From IMG/VR virus record IMGVR_UViG_3300034024_000020, positions 51,704-115,703 of that record: DNA of 64,000 nucleotides; one strand, given 5' to 3'. Source of the DNA: a virus. A model generated the notes under the pieces. That model was given only the letters and a program-made list of their open reading frames with translations. It did no database searches and was not told where the DNA came from. The translations under genes were made by a program, and so were the position numbers. Below, piece by piece: positions 9,000-64,000 of this stretch; position 1 is the first letter of the stretch, and each line of letters opens with the position of its first letter.

Positions 9000-11349
9000 A
9001 GTAGCCTTAGTAGAGACCAAGCCGTCTCGTACTAACTTCAATGACGCGTTTGAAAGCGCATTTGAATTCGATAGATATCAATTATGCTCTAATCCGGCTA
9101 TTAAGAAGCCGCTTAAAAAAGATGTTGATATTGACATCAATGTAGATGACTATGACTGGATCATCCTAGTAGGTGCTGATTCTTTCAAATATTTCACGGG
9201 AAAGACATCTATATCTGATTTCTCTGGCAAGCCTGTCAACGAGAAATATATACCTATTATCAATCCTGCCATGCTAACTTTCAAGCCAGAAGCTGAGAGA
9301 TTATGGCAGGAATCCAAGACTTCCCTAATTAGATACATAACCGGTAATGCAAAGGTAGTAAGTTATAACAGTGACAAAATCTACGGTATCACTGAGGAGC
9401 AGCAAGCCCTTGAATATATTCAAGCTGCGATACTCGCGCCCTCAAAATATGTCGCCCTCGACTCCGAAGCTTCCGCTCTATATGCGCGCGACGGTCACGT
9501 TCTTGGGATTAGTCTTTGCTATGAGCGGGATCATGGCGTATACATTAGCGCCGACTGCATCACGCCAGAAGTAGAAGAGAAACTACAAGAGCTATTTAAC
9601 AAGAAGATTGTAATCTTCCACAATGCTAAATTCGATATCGGATTCTTCTGGTATCATTTTGGGTGGCAGTTCCCTAGATTTGAAGATACTATGCTTCTGC
9701 ATTATTGCATCGAAGAGAATCCAGGCAACCACGGATTGAAGCAGCTTGCTCTAAAGTACACAGTCTACGGGGACTACGAAGCTGGTTTAGAAGAGTTCAA
9801 GGCAGAATATTGCAAGAAGAATGGGGTTAAAAAGGATGACTTTACGTACGATCTTATTCCTTTTGATATCATGTTCCCTTATGCAGCAATCGACTCTATT
9901 GTCACGTTCCTGCTCTTCTTAAAGCTGAAAGCAGCTGTTACGAAGAATCCAAAACTACATTGGGTATATGAGAATATTCTAATTCCAGGTAGTGATCTTC
10001 TTACTGAAATTCAAGATAACGGAGTACCATTTGATCGTAATCGCCTAGAAAAGGCGTCGATTATGATGCAGACCGATATTGATAATGCTGTAGCTCAGTT
10101 GTATGAGCACCCAGTAATTCGTGAATTTGAAGAAGCTCAAGGAAAGACTTTCAACCCGGGTAGCACGCAACAGCTGCGTAAGTTGCTATTTGATTTCGTT
10201 GGATTAACTCCAACAGGTAAAAAGACAGGCACAGGAGCAGCGTCAACGGACGCGGAAGTGCTAGAGGAATTGAGTGAATATAGTGAAATTCCTAAACTCA
10301 TCCTTAATATCCGAAAAAAGTCAAAAATTAAGAATACGTACCTTGACAAAATCATACCTCAGCTTGACGCTGACGGTCGTCTCCGTACTGGTTTTAATCT
10401 TCATAGCACTACTAGCGGAAGGCTTTCATCCTCTGGCAAGCTCAACATGCAGCAGTTGCCAAGAGACAATCCTGCCGTAAAGGGTTGTATTAAAGCTCGT
10501 CCAGGATACAAGATTGTATCTATGGATTTGACCACCGCGGAGGTTTATGTAGCCGCGGTTCTCTCAGGCGATAAAAAGCTGCAAGAGGTTTTCAAGTCGG
10601 GACAGGATTTCCACTCTACTATTGCTAAAATGGTCTTTAAGCTAGATTGTAGGGTAGAGGATGTTAAGAAACTTTATCCTCATCTAAGACAAGGGGCTAA
10701 ATCTACTACCTTCGGTATTCTTTATCAGGCTGGAGCTATTACAGTAGCTAATCAGATTAGGAAAGAATCTGGTGTTTATTGTAGTGTGTCTCAAGCACAG
10801 AGATATATCGACGATTACTTCAAGGAATTCAAGCAGCTTCACAAGTGGATCGAAGCACAAAAGGACTTTATTGCAACCAACGGTTTCATTTATAGTCATT
10901 TTGGTAGAAAGCGCAGACTTCCAAATGTTAAATCATCTGATAAGGGTATTAAGGCTCACACCATTCGATCTGGTGTTAACTTCCTAGTTCAGTCTCCTGC
11001 ATCGGACATTAACTTGTTCGCAGCTATTGAAATGAGACACTTCATCAACAAGAATAAGATGAAAAGTCTCATATTCGCACTGGTTCACGACTCTATTCTA
11101 GCAGAGGTTCCGGAAGATGAAATTGATTTCTATACCGAAACTCTCCGAGGTTTCGTGCAGGCAGACCGCGGACTTTCAATCCCAGGTTATCCGATTGGAT
11201 GTGACTTCGAAGTGGGAGATGACTACAGCTTTAATGCCAAACATGATGATTATCCAAATGAAACCAAATATCAGGTCTACGAACGAGGATGGGATTCTAA
11301 GCTGCCACAGCTAATGGATAGTTTAGTAAAGCTATGCAAGACGAATTAA
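8992..11349 (+). CDS. Family A DNA polymerase with 3'-5' exonuclease
   Basis: 785 residues. A 3'-5' proofreading domain is visible (ALDSEAS near residue 155, IFHNAKFDIGF near 207). Polymerase motifs: A SMDLTTAEVYV near 511, B RQGAKSTTFGILY near 565 and C LVHDSI near 697. Motif A keeps the catalytic Asp and Glu but departs from the usual DYSQIELR, and motif C has HDS instead of HDE. No 5' nuclease domain is present; that function is a separate gene at 20341. It is the likely replicative polymerase, like T5 D9. Confidence 0.93.
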   Translation: MAKVALVETKPSRTNFNDAFESAFEFDRYQLCSNPAIKKPLKKDVDIDINVDDYDWIILVGADSFKYFTGKTSISDFSGKPVNEKYIPIINPAMLTFKPEAERLWQESKTSLIRYITGNAKVVSYNSDKIYGITEEQQALEYIQAAILAPSKYVALDSEASALYARDGHVLGISLCYERDHGVYISADCITPEVEEKLQELFNKKIVIFHNAKFDIGFFWYHFGWQFPRFEDTMLLHYCIEENPGNHGLKQLALKYTVYGDYEAGLEEFKAEYCKKNGVKKDDFTYDLIPFDIMFPYAAIDSIVTFLLFLKLKAAVTKNPKLHWVYENILIPGSDLLTEIQDNGVPFDRNRLEKASIMMQTDIDNAVAQLYEHPVIREFEEAQGKTFNPGSTQQLRKLLFDFVGLTPTGKKTGTGAASTDAEVLEELSEYSEIPKLILNIRKKSKIKNTYLDKIIPQLDADGRLRTGFNLHSTTSGRLSSSGKLNMQQLPRDNPAVKGCIKARPGYKIVSMDLTTAEVYVAAVLSGDKKLQEVFKSGQDFHSTIAKMVFKLDCRVEDVKKLYPHLRQGAKSTTFGILYQAGAITVANQIRKESGVYCSVSQAQRYIDDYFKEFKQLHKWIEAQKDFIATNGFIYSHFGRKRRLPNVKSSDKGIKAHTIRSGVNFLVQSPASDINLFAAIEMRHFINKNKMKSLIFALVHDSILAEVPEDEIDFYTETLRGFVQADRGLSIPGYPIGCDFEVGDDYSFNAKHDDYPNETKYQVYERGWDSKLPQLMDSLVKLCKTN

Positions 11350-56825: not shown

Positions 56826-56913
56826 GGCCTCGGAGAGGCCAAAGTATAGTCTAATAACCGCCCCCTGTCAAGGATTATCTCACTAACATATGTTATGATC
56901 TTTTTTGTTGACG
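56826..56913. promoter_or_regulatory. Divergent promoter module 1 with hairpin
   Basis: Left to right: hairpin GGCCTC-gga-GAGGCC (56826-56840); minus-strand promoter with TATACT (56843-56848) and TTGACA (56866-56871), spacer 17, firing toward the terminase genes; then a 35-base stretch ending in a T6 run, and a plus-strand TTGACG at 56908-56913. The stretch GTCAAGGA to TTGAC is repeated almost exactly at 57983-58028 (module 2). Confidence 0.75.
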
Positions 56914-57881: not shown

Positions 57882-57890
57882 ACGAAGGCT

Positions 57891-58029
57891 CCCGATGATA
57901 TAACGTATCATCGGGGGTCGGACTCCGACCGCGCCGACGCAGCACAGGGCACACCTACATATAACATGGCCACATATGCGCCGTCAAGGACTATTTCAGC
58001 AACCTATGTTAAGAACTTTTTTATTGACT
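57891..58029. promoter_or_regulatory. Divergent promoter module 2 with tandem hairpins
   Basis: Hairpin CCCGATGATA-taacg-TATCATCGGG (57891-57915) is followed directly by GGTCGG-ACT-CCGACC (57916-57930). The minus-strand promoter has TTATAT (complement of 57959-57964), spacer 17, TTGACG (complement of 57982-57987). A plus-strand TTGACT lies at 58024-58029. The 46-base stretch between the two -35 sites matches module 1 closely. Confidence 0.75.
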
Positions 58030-59149: not shown

Positions 59150-59293
59150 ATGGGCGCGTGGGAAAAGGGGCTTGAAGCCCACCTGAAAGGGAAGCGTAAA
59201 AATCCCTTTTCCCACGGCTCTGCCGACTGGCACGAATGGAGGCGAGGCTGGAAAGACAGGGACAGGATTGCTACGTTCCGCTTTTGTTCCTGA
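59150..59293 (+). CDS. 47-residue ribosome modulation factor-like protein
   Basis: MGAWEKGLEAHLKGKRKNPF followed by ADWHEWRRGWKDRDR matches the pattern of ribosome modulation factor (W/YxxG...A...GK...NPF...W..GW). RMF dimerises ribosomes during stationary phase. A phage copy could modulate host translation; this is inference. Its stop codon lies inside the first hairpin of module 3, so the end of the protein is encoded by the repeat itself. Confidence 0.5.
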   Translation: MGAWEKGLEAHLKGKRKNPFSHGSADWHEWRRGWKDRDRIATFRFCS

Positions 59294-59406
59294 GCGGGCG
59301 GAAGTCCGCCCCCGCCGCAGCGAGCCGCTACTCAGAGCATAGCAAATTTCAGGAACCGCTGTCAAGCAATCTTTTCTCTTGACTAAAACTATTTTGACCC
59401 TAGAAG
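59278..59406. promoter_or_regulatory. Divergent promoter module 3 with tandem hairpins
   Basis: Hairpin CCGC/GCGG (59278-59297), then GGGCGG-AAGT-CCGCCC (59296-59311). Minus-strand promoter: TTGACA (complement of 59360-59365), spacer 18, TATGCT (complement of 59336-59341) with TG extended -10. Plus-strand TTGACT at 59379-59384 with TAGAAG at 59401-59406. The two -35 words are separated by 13 bases (GTCAAG, 11 bases of DNA, CTTGAC). Confidence 0.8.
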
Positions 59407-59412
59407 GGTAAT

Positions 59413-59646
59413 ATGACCGACGCAGAAAAGATCGCCGCTTTCCTCGCCTCCAAAGGCGCGACGAAGCTTCCCACGGGCGCTAGCAACAATGTCACTAGCG
59501 GGCAATGGTATAAAGCCAGCCAAGGGGTTGTTGACTTGCGCTCGAAATTGGCGCAAGGTCCCTTACCGGAGCCGAAGAAAAAGGCTTCGAAACCTGCCCG
59601 CAAGGGTGAGACTTTCTTTCATGACGCCTATAGGAGGGCAAACTAA
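59413..59646 (+). CDS. Small hypothetical protein
   Basis: 77 residues from ATG with AAGGG upstream. Helical start (MTDAEKIAAFLASKGATKLP) and a Lys/Pro-rich C-terminus (PEPKKKASKPARKG). Its end carries the AGGAGGG of the next gene. Possibly DNA- or RNA-binding because of the basic tail. Confidence 0.55.
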   Translation: MTDAEKIAAFLASKGATKLPTGASNNVTSGQWYKASQGVVDLRSKLAQGPLPEPKKKASKPARKGETFFHDAYRRAN

Positions 59647-59985
59647 ATGTTCGATGATTATTTCCCCTATATCGTAGCGGCCGCCCTTTTCATCATGGCG
59701 CTTGCGCTCTGGTACGGCTGGCGCGCTTGCAATCGCGTTCCGCGTGATCCGACGGTTTCGGAAAACGACGAGATTTACGCCGATGGCTTCGACGCGGGCT
59801 ATCAGGACGGCCATTCGGACGGCTATTTCGACGAGCCGCGCCGCCCCGATTATGCGGTCGGGGACGACGACAAGCCGACGCGCTATGCTCTCGGCTATCG
59901 CGAAGGCTATGCGGAAGGCTATGAGGCTGGACAAGCCGAAGGCGACCGCGACGAGGAAGCGGGAGGGCTCGATGAAAGAGTGTGA
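59647..59985 (+). CDS. Single-TM protein with Gly-Tyr repeats
   Basis: 112 residues. N-terminal membrane anchor (YIVAAALFIMALALWYGW), then a soluble part with repeating G-aromatic units (ADGFDAGYQDGHSDGYFD; YALGYREGYAEGYEAG). This repeat resembles those in the 58275 protein. Possibly membrane-tethered inhibitor of host translation or other complex; inference only. Confidence 0.55.
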   Translation: MFDDYFPYIVAAALFIMALALWYGWRACNRVPRDPTVSENDEIYADGFDAGYQDGHSDGYFDEPRRPDYAVGDDDKPTRYALGYREGYAEGYEAGQAEGDRDEEAGGLDERV

Positions 59986-60082
59986 GCCGAGCGACGATTT
60001 CTTCTATGAACCCACCTGTCATTGGTGTGGCGAGCCAGAAGACGATTGTGCTTGCGACAATGAGGAAGAGCCATTCCTCTAG
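59972..60082 (+). CDS. 36-residue acidic zinc-finger-like peptide
   Basis: ATG with GGGAGGG upstream, overlapping the preceding gene by 14 bases. Four cysteines in a CHWC ... CAC arrangement (CHWCGEPEDDCACD) are consistent with one zinc site; the rest is very acidic. Real gene likely given ribosome site; function unknown. Confidence 0.5.
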   Translation: MKECEPSDDFFYEPTCHWCGEPEDDCACDNEEEPFL

Positions 60083-60089
60083 GAAACCC

Positions 60090-60234
60090 GGCCGTTCTGG
60101 ATTTGTTCCAGGGCGGTCGGAATTCCGACCCCGAATTTTTGGCCCCACTCCTCTAAGAACATAATAGCAGATGCCACCACCCTGTCAAGCAATCTTTTCT
60201 CTTGCGTTGCAAATAATTTTGCCCTACCTAGAAC
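60090..60234. promoter_or_regulatory. Divergent promoter module 4 with tandem hairpins
   Basis: Outer stem GGCCG/CGGTC with inner CTGGA/TCCAG (60090-60118), then GGTCGG-AATT-CCGACC (60115-60130). Minus promoter TTGACA (complement of 60183-60188), spacer 16, TATTAT (complement of 60161-60166), extended TGC. Plus site: TTGCAA at 60207-60212 and CCTAGAAC at 60227-60234. Confidence 0.82.
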
Positions 60235-60254
60235 GGGAAGCTAGAGGAGATTTT

Positions 60255-60791
60255 ATGACCTACGTTGTTTTCGATCTCGACGGAACCGTGATCGACAGTT
60301 CCCACCGCCACCTTGCGAAGCCTGACGGCTCCGTAGACTTGGAACACTGGTTCGACAACGCCACGCCGGAAAAAATCGCCCTCGACGGATTGCTTCCGCT
60401 TGCGGACTCCATGCGCGCAATCCACCGGGCCGGTCATCGGGTCATTATCTGCACGTCCCGCTCGTTTCAGCCCGCCGACCTGAAATTTTTGGAGGATAAT
60501 GACCTCCCCTATCACCACCTTTTCAGCCGTCCCGGCTTTTTCGTCGGGCGCGACGATCCGCGCTATGCCGATAGCTATTTCGGCTTCATCGGGGATGCGC
60601 GTTCCGACGAACTAATCAAGGCGGAACAGCTTGCCGAATTTTTCCGTTCGGAAGGCTTCGAAAGCATTGCGGATGCTCCTGCTATCATGTATGATGACAA
60701 TCTGAAGGTCATTCGCAAGATGAACGAAATCGGCCTTCCCTGTCTCAATGCGGTCAACGTGAACGCGCAAATTTTAAGGAACGCGGCATAA
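60255..60791 (+). CDS. HAD-family phosphatase, PNK 3'-phosphatase-like
   Basis: 178 residues from ATG with AGAGGAGA upstream. Motif I VFDLDGTVIDS near residue 6, motif II VIICTSRS near residue 70, and motif IV region MYDDNLKV near 150 are HAD hallmarks; the ordering resembles the 3'-phosphatase domain of T4 polynucleotide kinase. No kinase domain is present, so it would trim 3'-phosphates on DNA or RNA, or act on small metabolites. Confidence 0.65.
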   Translation: MTYVVFDLDGTVIDSSHRHLAKPDGSVDLEHWFDNATPEKIALDGLLPLADSMRAIHRAGHRVIICTSRSFQPADLKFLEDNDLPYHHLFSRPGFFVGRDDPRYADSYFGFIGDARSDELIKAEQLAEFFRSEGFESIADAPAIMYDDNLKVIRKMNEIGLPCLNAVNVNAQILRNAA

Positions 60792-60910
60792 TGGCGAATA
60801 TCGACAAAATCCCGAACCCGGAGCATACGGCTCTAGCAGTCGCGGCAATTCGTCTTCGAAAGGTTCGGGAGGAAGCGGATTTCATCGACAGACAATTCGA
60901 AAGGAAATAG
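60791..60910 (+). CDS. 39-residue helical peptide
   Basis: ATG overlapping the HAD stop (TAATG). Helical and charged (AAIRLRKVREEADFIDRQFE). Next gene's ATG is one base after its stop, with AAAGGAAA at its end. Function unknown. Confidence 0.45.
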   Translation: MANIDKIPNPEHTALAVAAIRLRKVREEADFIDRQFERK

Positions 60911-60911
60911 A

Positions 60912-61184
60912 ATGAGAAAAATCAGATACAAACTCGATATCGGCTATGCCGGTTGTGGCGACGAGGGAACGGAAACGGTCCCCGACGATATGACCGATGC
61001 CGATATTGACGCTATGGTTCAGGACATGGCGCAAGAACACGCCGCAAGCTGGGAAGGCGATAATCGTCTCTGCTGGGATGAGGATATGTCCGAGGAGGAC
61101 TATCAAGACGCCACGGAACATTTTTACGAAGGCGTTTGCGGCTCGTGGTCTTTTGTCCTTGACGGCGACGAAGACGAGGACTAG
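60912..61184 (+). CDS. Small acidic hypothetical protein
   Basis: 90 residues, very acidic (about 25 Asp/Glu), three Cys. MRKIRYKLDIGYAGCGDEGT is followed by a helical region (DADIDAMVQDMAQEHA). No membrane span. Last gene before module 5. Function unknown. Confidence 0.5.
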   Translation: MRKIRYKLDIGYAGCGDEGTETVPDDMTDADIDAMVQDMAQEHAASWEGDNRLCWDEDMSEEDYQDATEHFYEGVCGSWSFVLDGDEDED

Positions 61185-61192
61185 GATAAACC

Positions 61193-61331
61193 GACCGTTC
61201 TGGATTTGTTCCCGGGCGGTCGGAATTCCGACCGCGTTTTCTCAAAACGCACCCCTGCTAAATATAACAGGTGAAAAATCTTTGTCAAGCCCATCTTTTC
61301 TGTTGCAAACATTTTTTACCTAGCCTAGAAC
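61193..61331. promoter_or_regulatory. Divergent promoter module 5 with three hairpins
   Basis: Outer stem GACCG/CGGTC (61193-61221), then GGTCGG-AATT-CCGACC (61218-61233), then an extra GCGTTTT-ctc-AAAACGC (61234-61250). Minus promoter TTGACA (complement of 61283-61288), spacer 16, TATATT (complement of 61261-61266). Plus site: TTGCAA 61303-61308 and CCTAGAAC 61324-61331. Confidence 0.82.
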
Positions 61332-61386
61332 AATCTCACGGCGGCGGGACGGTCCCAAAGCTGACAACCGACAAGGATGATTTCAG

Positions 61387-61638
61387 ATGCGACGTTCAAT
61401 TTTGGGGCTGTGTGCCCTTGCCCTTCCGCTCGCAGCCCTCGGCGCGTGCAACATTCCCGATCCGCGACCGGCGCAGCAAGCCGAATGCGACAATCTCGGC
61501 GGCACCTACCGGGCCGATCCGGAGGGCGCTCGCGAGGACGAGTGCACGGTGACGGCGCGCAATGGCGTTCCCTTCACCATCGAATACGACGACGTTCATA
61601 CCGCTTCGGGCGCTCCGGCGACCGGCGGCGACGACTAA
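61387..61638 (+). CDS. Small lipoprotein
   Basis: 83 residues. Signal peptide with Arg-Arg start and hydrophobic core (MRRSILGLCALALPLAALGA), then the lipobox cysteine at residue 21 (LGAC). The mature part is acidic and contains two more Cys that could pair. Phage lipoproteins such as T5 Llp block receptors and exclude superinfection; that role is a guess here. AAGGATG upstream. Confidence 0.7.
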   Translation: MRRSILGLCALALPLAALGACNIPDPRPAQQAECDNLGGTYRADPEGAREDECTVTARNGVPFTIEYDDVHTASGAPATGGDD

Positions 61639-61639
61639 G

Positions 61640-61891
61640 ATTTTAGGGCCGACCGTTCCCAAGTCGGCTAAAACGCGAGTGATCGCTACCGGCCCTAAAT
61701 CGCTTCCGATGCTATCTCAATTTAGCAAGTCGAGACTAAAATAACCTGCCTAGCAAGCGGCTCTCGCAGGGGACCTCGAAAAATGTCCTGCCGCAAAGGG
61801 ACAAGGGAGACTTGGAAACTCCCCGGAAGCAAAATGAAAAGGTGACGGTACAAGCCCGTTAATCCGCGACCGTGCGGAGCCACCTTTTCCC
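61640..61891 (+). ncRNA. Gene-free region with several stems, structured RNA candidate
   Basis: No convincing gene. Stems: TTTAGGGCC/GGCCCTAAA (61642-61650 with 61691-61699) closing a GCGA-gtga-TCGC hairpin with a GNRA loop (61675-61686); GGGAG/CTCCC (61805-61823); and a three-way junction of AAAAGGTG/CACCTTTT (61837-61844 with 61881-61888), ACGG/CCGT (61845-61859) and TCCGC/GCGGA (61863-61878). Promoter of module 5 would transcribe it after the lipoprotein. It does not match tRNA, tmRNA or cobalamin riboswitch layouts as I know them. Confidence 0.45.
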
Positions 61892-61942
61892 TATTGACTG
61901 TCAAGCCGATAATGGGTAGCCTAGGGAGGCAGTCACGGTTCC

Positions 61943-62079
61943 GGTCGTCCTAGGTTGGGGCGGCCGGAATTCCGGCCCCGCCCGCAACGGTCGGTTTCCT
62001 CTAAGACCATAATAGCAGGTTCGGCAAGCCTGTCAAGCAAACATTTCGCTTGCAAGCAAATTATTTTTCCTCTAACAAG
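61943..62079. promoter_or_regulatory. Divergent promoter module 6 with tandem hairpins
   Basis: Outer stem GGTCG/CGGCC (61943-61965), then GGCCGG-AATT-CCGGCC (61962-61977). Minus promoter TTGACA (complement of 62031-62036), spacer 16, TATTAT (complement of 62009-62014) with TGC in front. Plus site: TTGCAA at 62050-62055 and CTAACAAG at 62072-62079. Immediately left (61904-61912) is a palindrome TTGACTGTCAA. Confidence 0.8.
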
Positions 62080-62128
62080 GTTCTACCGGGATGGCCCGGC
62101 GACCGTAAACGAAAGGATGAAGGTCAAG

Positions 62129-62284
62129 ATGGCGATTAACAAAAGACGAGCGGAGCGCATGGCGCGACGCAGCGACGCGGAATTGGTCCGCTTCGTTCAT
62201 GCCAAAACGCTTTCCAGCGCGGCGGCCTATTACGCACTCGAAAAGCGGGGCAAGCTGTCCCTGCTCGCGAAGGAGGTGCGCTAG
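62129..62284 (+). CDS. 51-residue basic protein
   Basis: ATG with GAAGG upstream; ATG at 62117 is an alternative, giving four more residues. Arg/Lys-rich start (MAINKRRAERMARRSDAELV) typical of nucleic-acid-binding small proteins; helical rest. Its end overlaps the next GTG by one base, and the next gene's AAGGAGGTG lies inside it. Confidence 0.5.
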   Translation: MAINKRRAERMARRSDAELVRFVHAKTLSSAAAYYALEKRGKLSLLAKEVR

Positions 62285-62460
62285 TGAACGCTCGCGCCAC
62301 CCGTCGCCGCGAAGGGGCGCTTGCTCGCCTTCGCACTCAGCTTCAATCGGGCACTCGCCCCTCTCAGGTTCCCGGCCTGAAAGGTTGCCGGGTAGACTTG
62401 ACGGAAGCCGATGTTTCCCGTATCAAGGCGGAAATCGCCACCCTCGAACGGAGGATTTAA
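62284..62460 (+). CDS. 58-residue basic protein
   Basis: GTG start behind an excellent ribosome site AAGGAGGTG. Arg-rich N-terminus (NARATRRREGALARLRTQ) and a helical C-terminus (SRIKAEIATLERRI). Probably DNA- or RNA-binding; no family recognised. Confidence 0.5.
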   Translation: MNARATRRREGALARLRTQLQSGTRPSQVPGLKGCRVDLTEADVSRIKAEIATLERRI

Positions 62461-62461
62461 T

Positions 62462-62596
62462 ATGCGTATCGTAGTCGGACGCGGTAACAACCGCCACGTT
62501 TTCGACGTTCCTCCCCGCAAGGATAAGGTGGCGCTGGAACGCGTTGCCGAGGACGTCAAGGCTTTTCTTTTTCGCCCCGCCCTGCTAGGGCGCTAG
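62462..62596 (+). CDS. 44-residue protein
   Basis: ATG one base after the previous stop, with GGAGG upstream. MRIVVGRGNNRHVFDVPPRK, then a helical segment. Last gene of this operon. Function unknown. Confidence 0.45.
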   Translation: MRIVVGRGNNRHVFDVPPRKDKVALERVAEDVKAFLFRPALLGR

Positions 62597-62682
62597 GGTT
62601 CGGCGGACGGAAAATCCTCTTTCCCAATTCCCCTTTAACCTTAGTAAGAACGACGGGGATACGCTGGAATTGCAGGATTTTG

Positions 62683-62719
62683 GAGCGGGTGGGGCTGGCA
62701 AGTCTCACCCGCTCTTTTT
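62683..62719 (+). terminator. Rho-independent terminator just before the 62733 gene
   Basis: Stem GAGCGGGTG / CACCCGCTC (nine perfect pairs, loop of 14 bases) followed by T5. The 62597-62682 stretch before it holds no gene. The ribosome site of the 62733 gene begins three bases after the T run, so this could be an attenuator for that gene. Confidence 0.88.
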
Positions 62720-62732
62720 ATTAGGAGGATTT

Positions 62733-62903
62733 ATGGAACCGAAATTCAAATATGCCTATAAGACGCAGGGTTCCGAAGGCTGGGAACAAATTGCGTTTGA
62801 AATGAGCGATGGAAGCACGATTTTCATTGACTTATGGCAGGGACGCTTTAGAGATAGCTTTTGGATGGACACAGAAGGAAAAATCCATGCTTCGACAAGT
62901 TGA
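62733..62903 (+). CDS. 56-residue hypothetical protein
   Basis: ATG with AGGAGG six bases upstream, right behind the terminator. Beta-patterned (KFKYAYKTQGSEGWEQIAFE). The start of the next gene lies within its end. Function unknown. Confidence 0.5.
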   Translation: MEPKFKYAYKTQGSEGWEQIAFEMSDGSTIFIDLWQGRFRDSFWMDTEGKIHASTS

Positions 62904-63177
62904 AATTTCAGACCGGACCCGCAAGGCGGGCGAAGTCGGGGGTTATCTAGGGATGGTCCTAATTCATGGCGCTACGCTTCCGGTTACGGTCGGAAATATC
63001 ATGGGCTGGACTGACAAACTCCCGCCGCTTTCGATGGTCCTGCTAGTCTGGCTTGGCCTCATTCTCTTTTTCATCCGGGCGCTTGTGCGCTTCGATTGGC
63101 TTTATCTGATTAGCAACGGAATTGGTTTCACGTTCAATTCCATCCTGCTAATCATTATCGTGCTTTACGGGAGTTAA
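62887..63177 (+). CDS. Small membrane protein with about three TM segments
   Basis: 96 residues from ATG with GAAGGA upstream. Hydrophobic segments VGGYLGMVLIHGATLPVTV, SMVLLVWLGLILFFIRAL and FNSILLIIIVLYG. Inner-membrane protein; function unknown. Confidence 0.6.
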   Translation: MLRQVEISDRTRKAGEVGGYLGMVLIHGATLPVTVGNIMGWTDKLPPLSMVLLVWLGLILFFIRALVRFDWLYLISNGIGFTFNSILLIIIVLYGS

Positions 63178-63181
63178 GGCG

Positions 63182-63424
63182 ATGGAGGATGACCGCTATG
63201 AAATCACCTATGAAGGCGGCTTTATGGCCGCCTTCAATAATAACGGCGAAACCCGTTATTATATCGAAAAGAAACTAAACGAGGGCGGTTTCTTTCCCGA
63301 AGATTTTGCCGTAACGAAAAACGGCGACCCTCTCACCGTAGAAGCGCGCTACAGCGTAAGCATCGGGGGGGCAGTAAATGAGAACGCTTTATCACGCTTA
63401 CACGGAGGAACATGGCGAATGTGA
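63182..63424 (+). CDS. Small hypothetical protein
   Basis: 80 residues from ATG with AAGGCG upstream. Beta-patterned (YEITYEGGFMAAFNNNG). The C-terminal 16 residues overlap the start of the next gene in another frame. Function unknown. Confidence 0.5.
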   Translation: MEDDRYEITYEGGFMAAFNNNGETRYYIEKKLNEGGFFPEDFAVTKNGDPLTVEARYSVSIGGAVNENALSRLHGGTWRM

Positions 63425-63596
63425 AGCCATGTTCTCCGAAACCGGCGAATTGCTAGGCATTTGGTCCTGCAATGACGCCACTTGGCGGAACGAATACTTT
63501 TCAGACTTTATGGAGGCTCTAGGCTTCAAGGTCGAAAACGCTTCGCCGGAATTGGTTGACAAACTCATTGCAACCGCTAAAGAATACTGGGGCTAG
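63378..63596 (+). CDS. Small hypothetical protein
   Basis: 72 residues from an ATG inside the preceding gene, preceded by a G-rich tract that can pair with 16S rRNA. Three Cys in the first third (ECEAMFSETGELLGIWSC). Acidic helical C-terminus. Function unknown. Confidence 0.5.
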   Translation: MRTLYHAYTEEHGECEAMFSETGELLGIWSCNDATWRNEYFSDFMEALGFKVENASPELVDKLIATAKEYWG

Positions 63597-63610
63597 GAAA
63601 GGAACCCAAA

Positions 63611-63832
63611 ATGCAACTTGCTAATTTCACCCCGGAAGAGCAGAAGCTGGCACTTTCGGAAATTCGCCGGAACCTCGACGAAGCCGAACGGATTTTCGAG
63701 GGGAACGATTATCACGCCACGGATGCAGAGCGGATGACGCGGCTTCACTTTCACTTGAACGAGGGGAGCCGTCAGCTTTCGCGGATCAAGGTCGCGGCTC
63801 GCCGTCAGCTTTGGTACGCGCAGCAACGCTAA
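63611..63832 (+). CDS. Small helical protein
   Basis: 73 residues from ATG with AGGAAAGGAA upstream. Almost wholly helical and charged (FTPEEQKLALSEIRRNLDEA). Last complete gene of the window; module 7 hairpins start eight bases after its stop. Confidence 0.55.
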   Translation: MQLANFTPEEQKLALSEIRRNLDEAERIFEGNDYHATDAERMTRLHFHLNEGSRQLSRIKVAARRQLWYAQQR

Positions 63833-63839
63833 GGTTTCT

Positions 63840-64000
63840 GGCCGTTCCGGTTTTGTTCCGGGGCGGCCGGAAGTCCGGCCCCGCCGCCGCAGGCCGGGCC
63901 TCCCTAGAACTTAAATAGCACCACCTAATAACGCTGTCAAGCGAAAAGATTGCTTGACATAACTTTTTTCACCTAAGCAGAATATAGCACCTAGCGCCCG
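63840..64000. promoter_or_regulatory. Divergent promoter module 7, cut by the window end
   Basis: Outer stem GGCCG/CGGCC with inner CCGG/CCGG (63840-63868), then GGCCGG-AAGT-CCGGCC (63865-63880). Minus promoter TTGACA (complement of 63935-63940), spacer 17, TATTTA (complement of 63912-63917) with TGC. Plus site TTGACA 63954-63959, followed by CCTAAGCAG. The driven gene lies outside the window. Confidence 0.8.

What the first reader, a model, noticed from the sequence alone, without database searches (positions are those of the whole stretch)
59278..63880. Covarying tandem hairpins with a fixed antisense promoter: candidate small RNA family
The second hairpin is GGNCGG-AAKT-CCGNCC with the third pair G-C, T-A or C-G in different copies. 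The first outer stem changes together as GACCG/CGGTC and GGCCG/CGGCC. Arms of the two hairpins share the CGGYC segment, so the two folds exclude each other as in attenuators. The antisense promoter, with an extended TGN -10 in five copies, would make a short RNA (roughly 65-75 bases) containing both hairpins and running into the 3' end of the preceding gene. Neither strand has a good T run after the hairpins, so this may be a regulatory RNA rather than a plain terminator.
Basis: partly seen in the sequence, partly recalled or inferred. Interest (0 to 1): 0.75.

Follow-up and report, generated by a model that had tools for sequence, protein, structure and literature searches.

The report
Repeated antisense promoters in phage pre-early genes
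Between the first-expressed genes of this T5-like phage sits a repeated cassette in which a strong promoter points backwards into the end of the preceding gene; the same backward promoter recurs across a large clade of uncultured phages even though the neighbouring hairpins differ, so it looks like a built-in natural 'antisense brake' rather than a conserved small RNA.

Summary
In detail: five intergenic cassettes (59.27-63.98 kb), plus weaker or divergent copies, each carry two mutually exclusive hairpins, a near-consensus antisense sigma-70 promoter and a sense promoter. The small-RNA-family reading is only partly right: a covariance model of the hairpins finds only this genome's own copies, covariation is minimal, and the sense strand folds better. 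What is conserved is the antisense promoter. In eight uncultured T5-like phages (the window's and seven found by protein similarity) the pre-early region carries 39 strong antisense promoters in about 60 kb (shuffles about 0.4), against 1 in about 76 kb of early-gene controls. In most relatives it reads TTGACA-N17/18-TAAAATYGGCGC followed at once by a hairpin of ever-changing sequence: at least 113 sites in viral contigs, 4 in 257 Gb of bacterial genomes. Nearly all elements point towards terL, against most neighbouring genes. Best explanation: a natural terminator-plus-antisense-promoter module that insulates and damps pre-early genes, like the synthetic part of Brophy and Voigt (PMC4731013). 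Transcription, mechanism and the role of the YGGCGC block (which also matches the Pu/GCGC of T5 nick sites) are untested.

The parts
56843..56871 (-). Divergent promoter facing the late (terminase/structural) genes, TTGACA-17-TATACT; boundary of the pre-early region
57889..57930 (+). Cassette 0 hairpins (CTCCCGATGATATAACGTATCATCGGGGG and GGTCGGACTCCGACC), weaker copy
57959..57987 (-). Cassette 0 antisense promoter, weak (TTGACG-17-TTATAT)
59275..59311 (+). Cassette 1 hairpins 1 and 2 (GGGCGG-AAGT-CCGCCC)
59336..59365 (-). Cassette 1 antisense promoter TTGACA-18-TATGCT, extended TGC
59379..59406 (+). Cassette 1 sense promoter TTGACT-16-TAGAAG
   Evidence: sequence
60089..60130 (+). Cassette 2 hairpins: extended hairpin 1 (60089-60119) overlapping hairpin 2 (60115-60130), then CCGAATTTTT
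60161..60188 (-). Cassette 2 antisense promoter TTGACA-16-TATTAT, extended TGC
60207..60234 (+). Cassette 2 sense promoter TTGCAA-16-TAGAAC
   Evidence: sequence
61191..61235 (+). Cassette 3 hairpins: extended hairpin 1 (61191-61223) overlapping hairpin 2 (61216-61235), then GTTTTC
61261..61288 (-). Cassette 3 antisense promoter TTGACA-16-TATATT, extended TGT
61303..61331 (+). Cassette 3 sense promoter TTGCAA-17-TAGAAC
   Evidence: sequence
61939..61977 (+). Cassette 4 hairpins (61939-61969 and 61962-61977)
62009..62036 (-). Cassette 4 antisense promoter TTGACA-16-TATTAT, extended TGC
62050..62078 (+). Cassette 4 sense promoter TTGCAA-17-TAACAA (weak -10)
   Evidence: sequence
63839..63880 (+). 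Cassette 5 hairpins (63839-63869 and 63865-63880)
63912..63940 (-). Cassette 5 antisense promoter TTGACA-17-TATTTA, extended TGC
63954..63983 (+). Cassette 5 sense promoter TTGACA-18-CAGAAT

Best explanation
These are regulatory cassettes between the pre-early (first-transferred) transcription units of a T5-like phage. Each one ends the upstream unit with one or two stem-loops, carries a strong host-type (sigma-70) promoter that fires backwards through those stem-loops into the 3' end of the upstream gene, and then a sense promoter for the next unit. The backward promoter is the selected part. Most likely (inferred, not shown) it works as a terminator-plus-antisense-promoter module: RNA polymerases fired from it, or recaptured there after termination, collide with sense polymerases and make antisense RNA. 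This insulates neighbouring pre-early units and lowers or times down pre-early expression. The hairpins are interchangeable end structures, not a conserved RNA. Shown by sequence: promoter, orientation, clade-wide conservation, replacement of hairpins. Inferred: transcription, collision, repression.
For: Pre-early antisense promoters scoring >=10.5/12: G000 5, G001 4, G002 9, G014 5, L315 1, L316 2, L318 5, L319 8 = 39 in about 60 kb (shuffle means 0.02-0.10 each); early-region controls 1 in about 76 kb although these have 38 sense promoters; first 5 kb of T5: 0. These relatives were found by protein similarity, not by the motif. The -35 and -10 are conserved while everything around them changes. 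At the motif-selected viral sites (>=113, versus 4 in 257 Gb of bacterial genomes) flanking genes are antisense on the downstream side 118:31 and on the upstream side 128:25 (crude ORF calls). When the -10 block alone is searched, true sites have TTGACA at spacing 18 and chance coding hits do not. Elements cluster in a few kb; in 12 of 12 records holding both terL and the motif they lie on terL's strand and point towards it, save one additional opposite-strand element in G035. A stem-loop (<= -8 kcal/mol) starts 0-11 nt after the promoter block at 67% of sites against 21% of shuffles. A synthetic terminator followed by an antisense promoter represses the upstream gene in proportion to promoter strength (PMC4731013), and E. 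coli polymerase often restarts backwards after termination (PMC6978322).
Against: No transcript evidence on either strand. Most sense-strand hairpins are not canonical intrinsic terminators (only 3 of 113 have >=5 T in the next 8 nt), so 'terminator' is weak for many copies. The invariant YGGCGC next to the hairpin, which in L319 lies 20-21 nt from the -10, is not explained by a bare antisense promoter. Some elements are sense-oriented (L121:6613, L121:7912, L163). Many hairpins are DNA dyads and could be protein-binding sites.
Confidence: 0.55

Rival explanations
1. The antisense promoter makes a discrete small regulatory RNA (65-75 nt in this phage, about 35-45 nt in some relatives) whose hairpins act in trans or on the overlapping mRNA 3' end.
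For: Promoter real; a 5'-terminal hairpin would stabilise the RNA; in G014 the hairpin after the promoter is followed by a T run on the antisense strand (AAGTCCTTATTTTATAAGGACTTTTTT), giving a plausible terminated RNA; 18 of 113 sites have >=5 T after the hairpin in the antisense direction.
Against: Hairpin sequence not conserved (108 distinct of 113); no G-U bias for the antisense strand (54 vs 61); in the window the sense strand folds better and holds the U-G pairs; no match of the RNA model outside this genome at E<0.01; no Rfam match.
Confidence: 0.15
2. The cassettes are divergent promoter regions regulated by proteins bound to the palindromes ('hairpins' are operators at the DNA level); antisense output matters only as a target or by-product of that control.
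For: Recurrent dyads: Fur-box-like TGAGAA-N3-TTCTCA directly downstream of 13 motif sites in several phages, ACAAATTTGT palindromes upstream of the antisense -35 at 14 sites; GTTC-N7-GTTC (alphaproteobacterial LexA-box consensus, own knowledge) in 4 window cassettes and clustered in the pre-early region; 29 of 113 hairpins are palindromic through the centre, 11 of 45 four-base loops against 2.8 expected.
Against: Most hairpins have non-palindromic loops; different dyads in different phages; no protein identified.
Confidence: 0.17
3. The conserved YG/GCGC-hairpin block is a site-specific nicking site like the single-strand interruptions of T5 DNA, with the promoter-like part as recognition sequence.
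For: YGGCGC fits the T5 consensus N-Pu/pGCGC-N annotated in AY543070 and the R/GCGC part of R/GCGCRGG given in PMC3517423; T5 nick 9748 is A-run/GCGC/palindrome; elements are on one strand in nearly all records; in L319 GGCGC is uncoupled from the -10.
Against: T5 major nicks have no TTGACA/TAAAAT but their own upstream motif GTAAY; RGG after GCGC is not conserved here; L121 and G035 have elements on both strands, face to face in L121; the window copies lack an exact YGGCGC after the -10.
Confidence: 0.08
4. They are tandem outward promoters that help transcribe the late block on the terL side, antisense to pre-early genes only by geometry.
For: All motif elements but one in 12 of 12 records point towards terL.
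Against: Up to 9 repeats spread over kilobases (and 16 kb away in G038), mostly followed by a hairpin; dedicated divergent promoters already sit next to the late block.
Confidence: 0.05

Closest known systems
Synthetic terminator + antisense promoter parts (Brophy and Voigt 2016, PMC4731013)
   Same: A terminator at the gene end followed by a promoter facing back into the gene; represses the gene by polymerase collision and antisense RNA.
   Different: Here natural, repeated many times in one region, shared by a phage clade, combined with a sense promoter and, in most relatives, a YGGCGC block; repression not demonstrated.
Secondary antisense initiation near terminators in E. coli and B. subtilis (Nat Commun 2020, PMC6978322)
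   Same: Antisense starts close to sense terminators.
   Different: [quoted passage not shown] here they are near-consensus and conserved between genomes.
T4 'promoter early stem-loop' (PeSL) mobile cassettes (Arbiol et al. 2010, recalled; paper not held)
   Same: Intergenic stem-loop plus early promoter repeated among small early genes.
   Different: PeSLs, as recalled, have no conserved antisense promoter.
T5 pre-early (first-step-transfer) region
   Same: Homologous genome organisation: neighbour of terL, A1 homologue in G001 and G002.
   Different: T5 has no repeated antisense promoters by the same scan.
T5 single-strand nick sites (N-Pu/pGCGC-N; R/GCGCRGG)
   Same: Contains Pu-GCGC, mostly one strand.
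   Different: Different flanking recognition sequence; tied to a sigma-70 promoter here.

Membership tests
Terminator/antisense-promoter module | promoter directed into the 3' end of the preceding gene, directly behind its stem-loop | tested here: met
Terminator/antisense-promoter module | functional terminator on the sense strand | tested here: inconclusive
   stem-loops present at 67% of sites; T-rich tail at 3 of 113; window copies 2 and 3 pass the terminator scan
Terminator/antisense-promoter module | antisense transcription lowers sense expression | not testable with these tools
   needs RNA-seq and promoter mutation
Small RNA family | conserved RNA sequence/structure with covariation in homologues | tested here: not met
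   model R1 finds only own copies at E<0.01; hairpins replaced in relatives; one covarying pair in hairpin 2, two in hairpin 1
Small RNA family | discrete RNA | not testable with these tools
   no transcript data
T5 nick site | Pu/GCGC core | tested here: met
   YGGCGC at relatives' sites; not exact in the window copies
T5 nick site | restriction to one strand | tested here: not met
   both strands in G053 (L121) and G035
T5 nick site | T5 upstream recognition motif | tested here: not met
   GTAAY motif seen in T5 flanks; relatives have TTGACA/TAAAAT
T4 PeSL cassette | stem-loop followed by an early promoter between early genes | tested here: met
   anatomy; definition recalled, not read
T4 PeSL cassette | mobility or shuffling of flanking genes | not tested
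   -

The most novel reading that the evidence does not exclude
A whole clade of T5-like phages uses a dedicated promoter class, TTGACA-N17/18-TAAAAT coupled to a constant YGGCGC-stem-loop block, repeated antisense at the ends of most pre-early transcription units, as a region-wide switch or insulator that turns down the pre-early genes; the YGGCGC block has a second, unknown function (protein binding or strand nicking).
Probability: 0.3. Interest if true: 0.8.

Novelty: new variant of a known kind. Interest (0 to 1): 0.62.

Why it matters
Antisense promoters in bacteria and phages are usually regarded as poorly conserved. Here near-consensus antisense promoters are kept at cassette after cassette, and phage after phage, while the sequence around them turns over. 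That would make this a natural counterpart of a part built by synthetic biologists, and it gives a handle on how T5-like phages control the first-transferred genes, which is little understood. It also defines a sequence tag (TTGACA...TAAAATYGGCGC) for finding this uncultured clade and its pre-early regions.

Tried and rejected
Exact search for the two-hairpin motif in viral contigs: no hit. Rfam and tRNA scans: nothing. Covariance model of the hairpins: own genome only at E<0.01. Phage and plasmid collections searched for the element: no match covering 80% of it, so no cultured carrier found. Strand bias of G-U pairs as a test of which strand is the RNA: no bias over 113 sites. Nick-site reading: considered because YGGCGC fits Pu/GCGC, down-weighted because both strands occur and the T5 flank motif is absent. 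Host rRNA-type promoter mimicry (GC-rich discriminator): not pursued; only 4 matches of the full motif in 257 Gb of bacterial genomes, about what chance gives, so not a common host promoter.
Full report
WHAT THE WINDOW IS. The window is positions 51704-115703 of a 115.7 kb virus record. The first bases of the record repeat its last ones, so it is a circularised assembly. DNA polymerase and terminase are closest to T5-like phages among cultured ones, at 45-48% identity. The finding lies between the late genes (minus strand, terL at 53.9-55.3 kb) and the early genes. In two nearer uncultured relatives, G001 and G002 (polymerase 70-71%), the matching region holds a homologue of T5 A1, the pre-early DNA transfer protein (phrog_1745, E about 1e-145). 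I therefore read 56.8-64 kb, continued in L009:1-2700, as the pre-early region. No A1 homologue was detected in G000 itself.

THE OBSERVATION. Each of five intergenic gaps (and, weaker, a sixth) has the order: stop codon, hairpin 1 overlapping hairpin 2, antisense promoter, about 13-18 bp, sense promoter, next gene. The antisense promoter is TTGACA, spacer 16-18, -10 TATTAT/TATATT/TATGCT/TATTTA with TGN before it. Hairpin 2 shows one covarying pair and hairpin 1 two; with six paralogous rows, one of them the other end of the same contig, this is weak. Folding the five copies on both strands gives the better energy on the sense strand in four (for example -27.7 against -17.7 kcal/mol in copy 4), and the extended stem uses U-G pairs that would be A-C mismatches in the antisense RNA. 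Copies 2 and 3 pass a terminator scan on the sense strand, and the L009 copy is followed by a T run. So as RNA the hairpins look more like mRNA 3' ends than like an antisense small RNA.

RELATIVES, CHOSEN WITHOUT THE MOTIF. Using polymerase, terminase or a pre-early exonuclease as bait, I collected the pre-early regions of seven more phages. Counting promoters with at least 10.5 of 12 consensus matches on the antisense strand gives 5, 4, 9, 5, 1, 2, 5 and 8 in G000, G001, G002, G014, L315, L316, L318 and L319. Dinucleotide shuffles give means of 0.02-0.10. Four stretches of early genes of the same phages (about 76 kb) give 1, although they hold 38 sense promoters; the first 5 kb of T5 give 0. 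The antisense promoter is thus a property of the pre-early region of this clade. Upstream of the exonuclease gene, G000, L317/L121, L318 and L319 all carry it, with unrelated hairpins; L315 and L316, where that gap is short, do not.

A SHARED PROMOTER CLASS. In G001, G002, G014 and most others the antisense promoter continues into an invariant block: TTGACA-N17/18-TAAAATYGGCGC, usually with TGM before the -10. Because the pattern included TTGACA, I repeated the viral scan with TGATAAAATTGGCGC alone: the sites split cleanly into those with TTGACA or TTGACG, nearly all at spacing 18, and chance coding matches without it. The carriers look like one clade: 17 of 37 tested records, including nearly all long ones, have a polymerase 47-67% identical to the window's. 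The element was not found in the collected cultured phages or plasmids. In L319 the layout differs: TATAAT-type -10, then 20-21 nt, then YGGCGC and the hairpin, at seven sites. The window phage resembles this second layout with a degenerate block (my reading).

ORIENTATION AND POSITION. With a crude ORF caller the gene on the hairpin side is antisense at 118 sites and sense at 31, and on the other side 128 against 25. In 12 records that hold both terL and the motif, the elements are on terL's strand and point to it, one additional element of G035 excepted. Sense-oriented copies exist: L121:6613 stands face to face with an antisense copy, and a group around L163 has a different surrounding. A stem-loop of -8 kcal/mol or better follows at 67% of 168 sites against 21% of (mononucleotide) shuffles; 108 of 113 such stem-loops differ in sequence, G-U pairs show no strand bias, and T-rich tails are rare on the sense side (3) and less rare on the antisense side (18).

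HOW IT PROBABLY WORKS. Promoter, position, orientation and conservation are shown at sequence level. That the promoter is active and represses is inferred. The anatomy equals the part built by Brophy and Voigt, a terminator followed by an antisense promoter, which represses the upstream gene in proportion to promoter strength (PMC4731013). A single-molecule study showed that E. [quoted passage not shown] A conserved, strong, repeated antisense promoter in the first-transferred region would insulate short units from each other and damp or time down pre-early expression. I put this at 0.55. The small-RNA, operator, nick-site and outward-promoter readings are listed as rivals.

WHAT IS NOT EXPLAINED. 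The YGGCGC block is kept next to the hairpin even where the -10 has moved away, so it is not just a promoter discriminator. It fits the T5 nick consensus N-Pu/pGCGC-N, but T5 nicks have another upstream motif and elements here occur on both strands in two records. Many hairpins are DNA dyads that recur, some Fur-box-like. The window cassettes carry GTTC-N7-GTTC.

LIMITS. No expression data; crude gene calls; the viral-contig scan was truncated; relatives are contigs of unknown completeness; a chance estimate for the viral scan would depend on the size of that collection in bases, which I do not know, whereas the bacterial-genome contrast does not. The shuffle is mononucleotide.

Noticed in passing
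window:63865-63880 and L006:40-55: The loop of hairpin 2 reads AAGT at the right end and ACTT at the left end of the same circularised contig: an inversion of the hairpin centre, which may also be why the contig breaks here.
   Followed up: partly
window:59275, 60094, 61197, 63844; L009:2386-2427; L089:3210-3246: GTTC-N7-GTTC (alphaproteobacterial LexA-box consensus, own knowledge) in four cassettes and as overlapping arrays in G000 and independently in G001; spacing 7 is the commonest in G000 (13; others 3-10).
   Followed up: partly
L107, L119, L123, L124, L128, L138, L141, L167, L221 and others, just after the element: A Fur-box-like 7-1-7 palindrome (TGAGAAT-N-ATTCTCA) recurs as the 'hairpin' in several different phages.
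   Followed up: partly
L010, L011, L090, L092: Early genes use another promoter class, TTGACT-17-TATAAT, in G000 often preceded by GAATTTAGTTC; virtually no antisense copies.
   Followed up: no
window:59360-59383 and 63936-63959: The 24-bp core between the two divergent -35 boxes is inverted in cassette 5 relative to cassette 1 (96% complementary).
   Followed up: no
T5 positions 9748, 22336, 39746, 78573 (AY543070): The four annotated T5 major nick sites share an upstream GTAAY motif about 36 nt before the nick, beyond the R/GCGCRGG given in PMC3517423.
   Followed up: no
L163:7480-8200: Non-coding stretch with several tandem promoters of the same class in sense orientation before a 55-aa gene.
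   Followed up: no
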